NCBI GenBank assembly: GCA_001787535.1
Contig: MFXP01000003.1
Span: 1 to 45,743, forward strand
Direction: 5' to 3'
From: Candidatus Peribacteria bacterium RIFCSPHIGHO2_01_FULL_51_35
GTDB taxonomy: Bacteria > Patescibacteriota > Gracilibacteria > Peribacterales > Peribacteraceae
DNA length: 45,743 bases
In this document: piece by piece, positions 30,272 to 32,874 of the stretch
Numbering within the stretch: position 1 is the first letter of the stretch
How the letters are laid out: each line of letters opens with the position of its first letter
Notes under the pieces: generated by a model
The model's input: the letters and a program-made list of their open reading frames with translations, nothing else
Told to the model about the DNA's origin: nothing
Databases searched by the model: none
Program-made: the position numbers and the translations under genes

Positions 30272-30952
30272 ATGCTCGACCATCCCTTCACCATCTTCGC
30301 ACCTTACGCGGACCGCCTCCGCATCGTTTTTTTCGACAAATCCGATCCCTCGATGAGTGATCATGACCGTGCAAAGCTACTTGGATGTGATCGCGCTGCA
30401 GCGCTGCACCAGATGCATGGCGCACGGGTTGTTCGCATCTCGGAAGAGAGTGATCGTACGGAACAAGCAGATGGCCTGATGACGGATCAAAAAAAATTGG
30501 TGCTGCAGATCCGCGCAGCGGATTGTCAGAATTTTATTGTCTACGCGACAGAAAAAAATATCGTCGGACTGCTGCATGTTGGGTGGAAAGGAATTCTTGC
30601 ACAGGCAATCCCCTCTTTCTTCGCCACGCTCAAAAAAGAATTTGATGTGGATGCACAAGAAACACTCGTCGGCGCGGGACCATCGCTGTGTAAAAACTGT
30701 GCCGAGTTCAGCGATCCCCTCCTGGAACTTCCTGGCATTCCGAAGGATTGCATCGATGATCATCTCGTTGATCTTCCTGAGATCGCACTGCGGCAATTCT
30801 TAGATGTCGGGGTTCTAAAAAAATCTTTTGAGTGCATGCCCGGCTGCACCAAGCACGAGCCGGAGAAATTTTGGACGTACCGAGGCGGGGATCGGGAAGC
30901 CGTACAACAGGGCCACACGAATGTCTTGGCAGCGGTGCTTTTGCGAGAGTAG
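30272..30952 (+). CDS. pgeF: PgeF/YfiH-family (laccase domain) protein
   Basis: 226 aa. Family members clear wrongly made peptidoglycan precursors (PgeF) or act as purine-nucleoside enzymes (FAMIN/YlmD). The conserved order is seen: ALHQMHGARVV (first zinc His), ADGLMT, IRAADCQNFIVYA (zinc Cys), LLHVGWKGI (zinc His), and GPSLCKNCAEF. The C-terminal EKFWTYRGG replaces the usual F-D-L segment. It follows nnrD after 45 bp that hold a palindrome. TACAAT (30256-30261) is 10 nt before ATG 30272. The substrate is uncertain. Confidence 0.88.
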   Translation: MLDHPFTIFAPYADRLRIVFFDKSDPSMSDHDRAKLLGCDRAAALHQMHGARVVRISEESDRTEQADGLMTDQKKLVLQIRAADCQNFIVYATEKNIVGLLHVGWKGILAQAIPSFFATLKKEFDVDAQETLVGAGPSLCKNCAEFSDPLLELPGIPKDCIDDHLVDLPEIALRQFLDVGVLKKSFECMPGCTKHEPEKFWTYRGGDREAVQQGHTNVLAAVLLRE

Positions 30953-31015: not shown

Positions 31016-31333
31016 GTGGATCAATCCCTGGATGAACTGAATATATTGATAAGCAGCGCATTGGAAGAAAACCGTAATAACATGGAAGCAGCACTGACGA
31101 AAGGCCGCCGAATCGCAGAGATTCAACCTCTAGACTATGACAGTTTATTTTTTATCTATGCTTTCACACGCAGTAACAGGGCTGCATTGGAGGCTATGAT
31201 CGCAAAATCTTTACAAAGGATCCCGGAAGAATATCGCGACGCTGTACCAGAAAATTATTTAGACCGCGAAATGCCTAAACCGCCACCGCCCGTATTACAC
31301 CATCACTGTGGTGGAGTCAGTATTTTGCAATAG
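31016..31333 (+). CDS. Hypothetical protein, about 105 aa
   Basis: Not recognised. Starts at GTG 31016 by default; the frame stays open upstream to the stop of pgeF (30952), so an earlier non-ATG start is possible. Predicted helical, with acidic and basic residues alternating. The last 20 residues are unusual: a Pro run, three His and a Cys (PPPPVLHHHCGG). No signal or membrane segment. Same strand as pgeF and 60 bp after it. Confidence 0.5.
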   Translation: MDQSLDELNILISSALEENRNNMEAALTKGRRIAEIQPLDYDSLFFIYAFTRSNRAALEAMIAKSLQRIPEEYRDAVPENYLDREMPKPPPPVLHHHCGGVSILQ

Positions 31334-31393
31334 TAAGGGCAAAAATCTCGGTATAATTCACTCAACGTTCAGAACATTTTCCCCAATGCTTTT

Positions 31394-31420
31394 TTGACAA
31401 AAAAGGCATCCGAATATTCA
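31394..31420 (+). promoter_or_regulatory. Promoter of the putative RNA gene
   Basis: Perfect TTGACA (31394-31399), 15-nt spacer, TATTCA (31415-31420). A second -10-like TATAAT without a -35 lies upstream at 31352-31357 and would start a longer transcript. Confidence 0.5.
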
Positions 31421-31427
31421 CATCCAC

Positions 31428-31698
31428 CTCTTTGTTCGATAGTCTGTGCAGAGTCTCGACGGCGCGTTAGGACAGTTACGTTTCTTCTCTAACTACTTGT
31501 TACGGGAGACTTAATCACTCCACACCGTGGTGCGGGGTTGCGGTCACCCACCTGGGCATCCAGGGACAAGCGTTCCTGCTCCGACGGCCGTTTTGATACA
31601 TGGCGAAAGAAAACCTTCCAGGTTTTCTCTCACCGGCTCTCTTTCCGGCAAAGTTGCCGCTCCAGTCCCGCATTCGCGGGACTTCGCGGCTTTTTTTT
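31428..31698 (+). ncRNA. Putative structured RNA of about 270-335 nt, family unknown
   Basis: A stretch of 400 bp without a credible gene lies between promoter-like signals (31352-31420) and an excellent terminator (31656-31698). Internal complementarity is high: GTCTC/GAGAC enclosing TTAG/CTAA segments (about 31452-31512), CACCGTGGTG, CCTGG/CCAGG, GAAAACCT/AGGTTTTC (about 31607-31627), and GCCGG repeats. Size would suit RNase P RNA or tmRNA, but neither the RNase P core motifs (GAGGAAAGTC, ACAGA) nor a tmRNA tRNA-like 3' end is present. It may be a leader of the dGTPase gene, but that gene has its own -10 box after the terminator. Confidence 0.5.
31656..31698 (+). terminator. Terminator of the putative RNA gene
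   Basis: GCCGC/GCGGC outer stem, inner GTCCCGC/GCGGGAC hairpin, then eight T. The inner hairpin is a TCCCGC-type dyad seen in other intergenic regions. Confidence 0.85.
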
Positions 31699-31737
31699 AA
31701 GCCAAGCCCACCTCATATCAGCTGCTACACTCTCAAT

Positions 31738-32874
31738 GTGTCTGCGCTAACAAATCGCATTGTGGCCGCAAATAAATTTCTTGCCCCCTACGCAGTCCCC
31801 CATCAGGGATTGCTGGGAAGAGTGAAAGCAGAACCGGAAGATGAAACGCGATCTCCGTTTCAACGTGATCGCGACAGGATCATTCACACGCAAGCATTCC
31901 GGAGGCTCCAGGGAAAGACGCAAGTGTTCGTCATTGGAGAAGGTGATCACTACCGAACGCGCCTTACGCACACCTTGGAAGTCGCGCAGATCAGCCGCGA
32001 TATTGCAAGGACTCTGAGACTGAACGAAGACCTGGCGGAGTGCATAGCCCTTGCACATGATCTGGGACATCCGCCCTTTGGACATGCCGGTGAACAGGCA
32101 TTGGACAAATGGATGCATGATCACGGCTCTTCGTTTGAACACAACCGCCAGTCTCTGCGGAATGTGACAACGCTGGAAGAGCATTCTTCGCTTATTGCAG
32201 GGCTGAATCTCAATAATGAAATCCTAGAAGGAATGCAGAAACACAGGACTCCACATGATCAAAGTACAGCCTCTGATCATGCTCATGATGACCACCGTGA
32301 TCATGCTCAGCACAGATCACTCTCGCTGGAGGCGCAGGTAGTGAATCTTGCCGATGAGATCGCGTACACAGGCCACGATGTGGACGACGGACTCCGCGCA
32401 AAACTGTTCACGAACAAAGACTTGGATGGGAATGTGTTGTCGGCATCGGCATTGCAACGATGCAGTGAACGCGGAACCTCCGTGCGCGGCGGCATCATTC
32501 ATTTACTGGTGATGGATTTGTACGCAGCAACGCAAAAATCCATCGAAAAAAATACTATAAAAAGTTTGGACGACGTGTATCGCGCATCGGAACTGATCGT
32601 CTGTTTTTCTTCGACCATGCAAAAAGAGTTGGACGCTCTCCGCGCATTTTTGTGGCAGCGGATGTATTTGGCACCCGCCGTGCAGAGTGCGAATGACGAG
32701 GGCAAAAAAATCGTCCTGGATCTGTGCGAACATCTCCTGAAACACCCGATAGAAAAAGTTTTGGCACTCCAAAAATCACACGGCGGAGAACTTGTGGAAG
32801 CGATCAAAGATTACGTCTCCGGGATGACAGATCAATTCGCTGCATCATCTCTCTTAAACATGGGCGGCAAGTAG
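31738..32874 (+). CDS. dgt: dGTPase-like HD-domain triphosphohydrolase
   Basis: 378 aa. HD-superfamily enzymes of this type hydrolyse dNTPs to nucleosides and triphosphate. Seen: SPFQRDRDRIIHTQAFRRLQ, TRLTHTLEVAQISRDIAR (first metal His), AHDLGHPPFGHAGEQAL (HD pair), EHNRQSLRNVTTLE, and LEAQVVNLADEIAYTGHDVDDGL (last metal Asp). The start is a GTG at 31738, with TACACT (31726-31731) 6 nt before it; the frame stays open upstream, but that part is the RNA gene. Residues about 174-195 (His/Asp-rich, with SDHAHDDHRDHAQH) are encoded by GATCATG-type repeats and look inserted. The 3' end overlaps the convergent M23 gene by 43 bp. Confidence 0.93.
   Translation: MSALTNRIVAANKFLAPYAVPHQGLLGRVKAEPEDETRSPFQRDRDRIIHTQAFRRLQGKTQVFVIGEGDHYRTRLTHTLEVAQISRDIARTLRLNEDLAECIALAHDLGHPPFGHAGEQALDKWMHDHGSSFEHNRQSLRNVTTLEEHSSLIAGLNLNNEILEGMQKHRTPHDQSTASDHAHDDHRDHAQHRSLSLEAQVVNLADEIAYTGHDVDDGLRAKLFTNKDLDGNVLSASALQRCSERGTSVRGGIIHLLVMDLYAATQKSIEKNTIKSLDDVYRASELIVCFSSTMQKELDALRAFLWQRMYLAPAVQSANDEGKKIVLDLCEHLLKHPIEKVLALQKSHGGELVEAIKDYVSGMTDQFAASSLLNMGGK
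32256..32320. repeat. GATCATG-repeat patch inside dgt
   Basis: Four GATC sites in 60 bp, with ATGATCA, TGATCATGCTCATGAT and GTGATCATGCTC. Translated in frame as a His/Asp-rich insertion. Confidence 0.7.

What the first reader, a model, noticed from the sequence alone, without database searches (positions are those of the whole stretch)
31352..31698. Uncharacterised RNA gene between pgeF and dgt
About 270-335 nt with promoter signals (TTGACA-15-TATTCA), rich pairing and a textbook terminator, and no reading frame. The size of RNase P RNA or tmRNA, but lacking the landmarks of both. It could be a divergent version of a known RNA or a new family.
Basis: partly seen in the sequence, partly recalled or inferred. 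Interest (0 to 1): 0.6.

Follow-up and report, generated by a model that had tools for sequence, protein, structure and literature searches.

The report
Divergent 6S RNA plus repeated terminator
The stretch between pgeF and dgt in this Peribacteraceae (Patescibacteria) genome holds a very divergent copy of 6S RNA, a known regulator that imitates a promoter and traps RNA polymerase, followed by a copy of an apparently undescribed repeated transcript-end element whose first hairpin looks built to form a triple helix.

Summary
The region holds two things.

(1) 31452-31598 is a divergent 6S RNA. The window copy alone scores below Rfam's cut-off (25.1 against 46.4 bits). Its orthologues match 6S full length at the same place and strand, one passes the cut-off (54.4 bits), and 16 of 242 class members do. 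It is single-copy in 69 of 74 Peribacteraceae genomes, usually between pgeF and dgt. A 46-sequence alignment shows strong compensatory change over closing stem, apical stem and 3'-bubble hairpin. A model built from these RNAs picks annotated E. coli ssrS as best hit. Covariation also supports, moderately, two mutually exclusive helices (P2 and a 'collapse helix'), as in Bacillus subtilis 6S-1.

It has no Rfam family. Its C/U-rich tail covaries with the purine arm of hairpin A in parallel register, as a pyrimidine triple helix would require.

The gene is a new member of a known kind; the repeat is the novel part. No expression or binding data exist here.

The parts
31417..31445 (+). 6S promoter: TTCACA (31417-31422), 17 nt, TAGTCT (31440-31445)
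   Evidence: A TAnnnT -10 aligns at this position in most relatives, 6-7 nt upstream of the conserved GTCTC start; the -35 is read from the window sequence only
31452..31598 (+). 6S RNA gene (ssrS-like), mature ~147 nt; 5' end ~31452/31453, 3' end at least 31597
   Evidence: RF00013 full-length match 31449-31602; orthologues to 54.4 bits; 46-sequence covariation
31453..31475 (+). closing stem P1, 5' strand (partner 31576-31597)
   Evidence: 12 of 18 pairs with two-sided changes, 91% of cells paired
31478..31490 (+). ACGUUUCUUCUCU: 5' strand of helix P2 (CGUUU 31479-31483 with AAGCG 31568-31572) plus start of the 5' central bubble; predicted pRNA template (pRNA about 5'-AGAGAAGAAACGU)
   Evidence: near-invariant block; P2 moderate support; template role inferred from the 6S mechanism in PMC8876501
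31496..31500 (+). CUUGU, 5' strand of the candidate central-bubble collapse helix; partner ACAAG 31566-31570 overlaps the 3' strand of P2
   Evidence: own pairing better than permuted, 0 of 5000 permutations; closest-pair test 12:5, p 0.07
31504..31549 (+). apical stem-loop (GGGAGACUU...CCGUGG...GCGGUCACCC), capped by a conserved CCGUGG apex
   Evidence: 9 of 9 pairs of the distal helix with two-sided changes
31551..31564 (+). 3'-central-bubble hairpin CCUGG-GCAU-CCAGG
   Evidence: 96.5% of cells paired; predicted in the window fold
31601..31699 (+). copy of a dispersed two-hairpin 3'-end element with terminator
   Evidence: models R2 and R3; no Rfam match
31602..31634 (+). hairpin A of the element: arms 31602-31616 and 31620-31634
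   Evidence: 11 of 14 pairs with two-sided changes across 54 copies
31637..31644 (+). candidate third strand CUCUCUUU, parallel to the purine arm 31605-31612; 7 of 8 U.A-U or C.G-C triplets in this copy
31656..31698 (+). hairpin B (31656-31671 / 31676-31690) and U-run 31691-31698: intrinsic terminator

Best explanation
31452-31598 is the single 6S RNA gene of this Peribacteraceae genome. The RNA folds into a rod: closing stem, open central bubble, apical stem. By the known 6S mechanism it would imitate a melted promoter, occupy the sigma70-type RNA polymerase holoenzyme when nutrients are short, and be released when the polymerase copies the bubble's 5' strand (predicted template ACGUUUCUUCUCU) into a short pRNA. 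Because the 3' strand of helix P2 can pair either with CGUUU (closed, binding form) or with CUUGU in the distal bubble (collapse helix), release probably follows the B. subtilis/Aquifex route. Shown here: homology, single copy, conserved gene order, conserved -10, covarying structure. Moderately supported: the two competing helices. Inferred: polymerase binding, pRNA synthesis, growth-phase role. The primary transcript probably ends in the downstream element at 31601-31699, a dispersed 3'-end element that terminates transcription; the mature 3' end is then made by processing (inferred).
For: Only full-length RF00013 match in the genome is here (E 0.002; against all of Rfam E 0.0035). Full-length 6S match at the same place and strand in 18 of 20 relatives' loci, up to 41.8 bits. 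16 of 242 class genomes exceed the cut-off, including G033 of the same family (54.4 bits), which matches the window RNA by blastn at E 5.5e-17. Covariation: 24 of 44 pairs with two-sided changes, score 0.359 against 0.186 shuffled and at most 0.123 slid. Model R1 finds it once in 69 of 74 family genomes and in 109 of 287 phylum genomes, and ranks annotated E. coli ssrS best in its locus (18.2 bits, same strand, full length). pgeF upstream 37 of 45, dgt downstream 35 of 45, both 32 of 45. Conserved -10.
Against: The window copy itself is 21 bits under the Rfam cut-off. It is shorter (about 147 nt) than typical 6S (180-200 nt). R1 includes distant sequences that RF00013 itself selected, so the reciprocal E. 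coli hit is not fully independent, and it is modest. No transcript, polymerase binding or pRNA was observed. Support for P2 and the collapse helix is moderate.
Confidence: 0.95

Rival explanations
1. It is a structured RNA that shares the 6S architecture by descent but now has a different partner, as Ms1 of Actinobacteria does with core polymerase.
For: Strong sequence divergence, short length, and the precedent of Ms1 (PMC9130861).
Against: The central-bubble anatomy, the pyrimidine-rich near-invariant template block and the 3'-bubble hairpin are kept; relatives in the same class pass the 6S cut-off. Ms1 is reported as ~300 nt with extra end hairpins.
Confidence: 0.04
2. It is a new RNA family (or RNase P / tmRNA) as first suggested.
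For: The window copy is under every Rfam gathering score.
Against: RNase P and tmRNA genes are elsewhere; the orthologues are 6S.
Confidence: 0.01
3. For the 3' element: the parallel covariation of tail and arm is a by-product of subfamily descent or of strand exchange (the tail pairing antiparallel with the 5' arm), so there is no triple helix and the element is a plain double-hairpin terminator or REP-like repeat.
For: The second-best register is antiparallel (z 6.0; 14:1), and in distant copies low complexity makes both readings fit.
Against: Among 24 registers the one-to-one parallel register is clearly best (z 11.3; closest-pair test 20:2, p 6e-5); the better antiparallel registers share a position with it; the tail mirrors the 3' arm, which ordinary duplication does not produce.
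Confidence: 0.45

Closest known systems
6S / SsrS RNA, Rfam RF00013 (E. coli ssrS)
   Same: Full-length homologous match, rod with closing stem, central bubble, apical stem, CACCCACCU and ACGGC blocks
   Different: Shorter (~147 nt), below the curated score, gene neighbours pgeF and dgt instead of zapA and fau
Bacillus subtilis 6S-1 RNA / Aquifex aeolicus 6S RNA (collapse-helix type, PMC8876501)
   Same: Short 3'-bubble hairpin in the free RNA, P2 next to the bubble, and a competing collapse helix using the 3' strand of P2
   Different: Sequence unrelated outside the core blocks; here the collapse helix rests on natural covariation, not on probing
BoxC / PIT intrastrand triplex elements (PMC4666352), for the 3' element
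   Same: Dispersed multi-copy element able to fold one strand into a hairpin plus Hoogsteen strand
   Different: Class III pyrimidine motif (purine, pyrimidine, Hoogsteen order) instead of class II purine motif; joined to a terminator hairpin; sits right after stop codons, tRNAs and 6S; PIT elements were reported without terminator activity

Membership tests
6S RNA (RF00013) | Homology to the 6S covariance model over its whole length, on the right strand, with curated-cut-off support in the orthologous group | tested here: met
   18 of 20 relatives full length; orthologue G033 54.4 bits over cut-off and linked to the window by blastn E 5.5e-17. The window copy alone, 25.1 bits, is under the 46.4 cut-off
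6S RNA (RF00013) | Rod: closing stem, central bubble, apical stem, supported by compensatory change | tested here: met
6S RNA (RF00013) | One highly conserved gene per genome across the clade | tested here: met
   69 of 74 family genomes, one match each; 56 of 57 good-quality genomes
6S RNA (RF00013) | Length about 180-200 nt | tested here: inconclusive
   Conserved RNA ~147-154 nt; class members also 150-160 nt; G002, G013 and G035 have matches of 207-212 nt
6S RNA (RF00013) | Binds sigma70-type holoenzyme and templates pRNA | not testable with these tools
   Needs biochemistry; only the candidate template block is visible
6S RNA, B. subtilis type | P2 and central-bubble collapse helix sharing one strand | tested here: inconclusive
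   Permutation 0 of 5000 for the collapse helix; closest-pair tests 12:5 (p 0.07) and 12:3 (p 0.018), controls null
RNase P RNA (RF00010) | Match to the model at this locus | tested here: not met
   No hit here; gene at C15:82873-83223, 97.4 bits
tmRNA (RF00023) | Match to the model / tRNA-like domain at this locus | tested here: not met
   ARAGORN none here; tmRNA at C16:74178-74590, 98.6 bits over cut-off
Class III intrastrand triplex element (3' element) | Order purine, pyrimidine, Hoogsteen pyrimidine, with parallel T.A-T and C.G-C triplets | tested here: met
   As sequence pattern: G-C with third C 290 of 322, A-T with third T 200 of 255, positions 4-11 in 86 distinct copies
Class III intrastrand triplex element (3' element) | Triple helix actually forms | not testable with these tools
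   Needs melting, NMR or probing
Intrinsic terminator (3' element) | G+C-rich hairpin followed by U-run, at ends of transcription units | tested here: met
   45 of 112 copies right after a same-strand stop codon (random 15%), 16 after tRNAs, 3 after 6S, 19 after a T-run
REP / MITE mobile repeat (3' element) | Mobilised by a transposase, with terminal or target-site marks | not tested
   No transposase was searched for

The most novel reading that the evidence does not exclude
31601-31699 is a copy of an undescribed, dispersed bacterial 3'-end element of Peribacteraceae (weaker relatives in other Patescibacteria) in which a hairpin and its 3' tail form a pyrimidine-motif RNA triple helix just upstream of an intrinsic terminator. 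It caps mRNAs, tRNA precursors and 6S RNA, possibly aiding termination or blocking 3' exonucleases, as the ENE/MALAT1 triple helices do in eukaryotes (that comparison is from general knowledge). Natural copies show compensatory changes of whole base triples.
Probability: 0.45. Interest if true: 0.75.

Novelty: new member of a known kind. Interest (0 to 1): 0.5.

Why it matters
It fills a gap: no paper in the searched library describes 6S RNA in Patescibacteria/CPR, yet the model built here finds it in 109 of 287 genomes sampled across the phylum. It suggests that these reduced, probably host-dependent cells keep a growth-phase brake on RNA polymerase, and it gives natural covariation data on the helices that govern 6S release. 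The neighbouring element, if its triple helix is real, would be a bacterial transcript-end structure whose base triples can be seen co-evolving across dozens of copies, which makes RNA triplexes testable by simple mutants.

Tried and rejected
RNase P, tmRNA and new-family readings were rejected. Spot 42 and Pyrobac-1 hits have E above 7 and are chance. The TTGACA-15-TATTCA promoter was rejected as not conserved. A first synteny count used a dgt query out of frame; it was repeated in frame and those numbers are used. The distant copies of the 3' element were tested for parallel against antiparallel complementarity and do not discriminate, because their tracts are of low complexity. Barrick et al. 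2005 was not held. Papers on RNA triple helices and terminators gave no bacterial precedent of this layout.

Full report
WHERE. The window is a contig of a 1.2-Mb, 18-contig genome. The family called f1 is therefore taken to be Peribacteraceae, phylum Patescibacteria. The flanking genes are confirmed by Pfam: a Cu-oxidase_4/PgeF protein at 30272-30952 and an HD-domain dGTPase-like protein starting about 31738.

THE OBSERVATION. The region folds far better than shuffles (z -4.6), carries no conserved frame and ends in a real terminator hairpin. blastn against 144 relatives split it in two: window 31452-31596, about once per genome, and window 31603-31700, many copies per genome. These are different things and are treated separately.

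THE RNA GENE IS 6S RNA. cmscan gives RF00013 6S, full length, at 31449-31602, 25.1 bits, E 0.0035 against all Rfam in 511 bases; it is the only 6S match in the genome. That is below the curated score, so the weight rests on orthologues. In 18 of 20 relatives' loci the same model matches full length at the same RNA and strand, up to 41.8 bits. Class-wide, 65 of 242 genomes match and 16 pass the cut-off, best 66.4 bits; one that passes, G033 (54.4 bits), is of the same family and is homologous to the window RNA by blastn. An alignment of 26 class members shows the shared blocks CUCUG, CGU..AG, CUCU, GGGA, CCGUGG, GCGG.CACCCACCU, ACGGC. A model built from it (R1) finds the RNA once in 69 of 74 family genomes, 56 of 57 good ones, and in 109 of 287 genomes drawn from the phylum. 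It picks the annotated E. coli ssrS as the best hit in its locus, right strand and full length. RNase P and tmRNA are elsewhere in the genome.

ANATOMY. On 46 sequences (A1) 93.7% of cells pair, 24 of 44 pairs have two-sided changes, and the covariation score is 0.359 (shuffled 0.186; slid structures at most 0.123). The parts are: closing stem 31453-31475/31576-31597; helix P2 CGUUU 31479-31483 / AAGCG 31568-31572; 5' central bubble 31484-31503; apical stem 31504-31549; 3'-bubble hairpin 31551-31564. A TAnnnT -10 sits 6-7 nt upstream of the closing stem in most relatives; in the window it is TAGTCT 31440-31445 with TTCACA 17 nt upstream, so the RNA starts at about 31452. In some relatives (L014, L050, several class members) a T-run follows the closing stem directly, so that stem doubles as the terminator. 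In the window it does not, and transcription presumably runs on to 31698.

MECHANISM. In B. subtilis and Aquifex 6S RNA, pRNA synthesis opens P2 and the freed 3' strand pairs with the distal 5' bubble, the collapse helix, while a short hairpin already stands in the 3' bubble (PMC8876501). The same three elements are here. CUUGU 31496-31500 can pair with ACAAG 31566-31570, which overlaps the 3' strand of P2. Own pairing energies beat every one of 5000 permutations among distinct sequences. A stricter test that swaps strands between closest relatives gives 12:5 (p 0.07) for the collapse helix and 12:3 (p 0.018) for P2, with null controls. I call this moderate support. The near-invariant ACGUUUCUUCUCU (31478-31490) lies where the pRNA template lies in known 6S RNAs; the pRNA is predicted, not shown.

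GENE ORDER. In 45 relatives' loci pgeF lies upstream on the same strand in 37 and dgt downstream in 35, both in 32, although many loci are cut by contig ends.

THE 3' ELEMENT. 31601-31699 belongs to a dispersed family of about 99 nt: 14 matches in this genome, present in 52 of 74 family genomes, and up to 55 scored in one (the scoring limit). A second model (R3) shows it is centred on this family, with weaker matches in other families. Rfam has no match. Layout: hairpin A (15 bp, apex ACC-UAC-GGU), a C/U-rich tail, hairpin B (CGCUCCAG...CUUCGCG) and a U-run. Across 54 copies 20 of 26 pairs have two-sided changes, score 0.434 against 0.147 shuffled. Of 112 copies, 45 begin right after a same-strand stop codon, mostly within 5 nt (random 15%), 16 begin 3-8 nt after a tRNA, 3 after 6S and 19 after a T-run. 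It is thus an end-of-transcript element.

TRIPLE-HELIX SIGNAL. The tail covaries with the purine 5' arm of hairpin A in parallel, one-to-one register: complement match 0.698 against 0.583 shuffled, z 11.3, the best of 24 registers tried. The closest-pair swap test gives 20:2, p 6e-5. G-C pairs face C in 290 of 322 cases and A-T pairs face T in 200 of 255 (A in 44). The window copy has 7 of 8 canonical triplets. Parallel T.A-T and C.G-C triplets define the pyrimidine motif; the order purine-pyrimidine-Hoogsteen is class III of Holder et al. 2015 (PMC4666352), who cite work that this type forms in RNA too. Caveats: copies are related, the second-best register is antiparallel (14:1), about a fifth of A-T pairs face A or another base, and distant copies do not discriminate. 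I put the triplex at about 0.45.

VERDICT. The RNA gene is a divergent 6S RNA, a new member of a known family, and on its own of modest interest. The repeated 3' element next to it is the unexpected part and raises the score.

Noticed in passing
31601-31699 and G000 C4, C5, C6, C11, C12, C15, C18: Dispersed two-hairpin 3'-end element with a candidate class III (pyrimidine-motif) intrastrand triplex; about 14 copies in this genome, no Rfam family.
   Followed up: yes
L152 and L154 (G000:C4:256074-256172 and C6:59172-59293): Two copies of the element end 2-5 nt before the start codons of genes that look like valS and metG (identified by eye from the N-termini), same strand; upstream of the metG copy lies what looks like a partial duplicate of the metG start.
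   Followed up: no
L042, L052 and G035:C19:39462-39673: 6S RNAs of G002, G013 and G035 are about 207-212 nt, apparently through an insertion in the apical half.
   Followed up: no
31724-31740: dgt seems to have its own -10 (GCTACACT) a few bases before its likely GTG start at 31738, so a leaderless mRNA; L004 and L014 look similar.
   Followed up: no
31016-31333: 105-aa ORF between pgeF and the 6S promoter without a Pfam match; not a recognisable gene.
   Followed up: partly
L073, L077, L078, L080, L082: The 6S core motif GGGAGRCY...TGCGGYCACCCACCTGG also occurs in Colwellbacteria, Magasanikbacteria, Buchananbacteria and Uhrbacteria contigs; model R1 confirms them, while Rfam's cut-off misses all of them.
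   Followed up: partly
1-836: 5' part of a 23S rRNA gene on the minus strand runs off the contig end.
   Followed up: no
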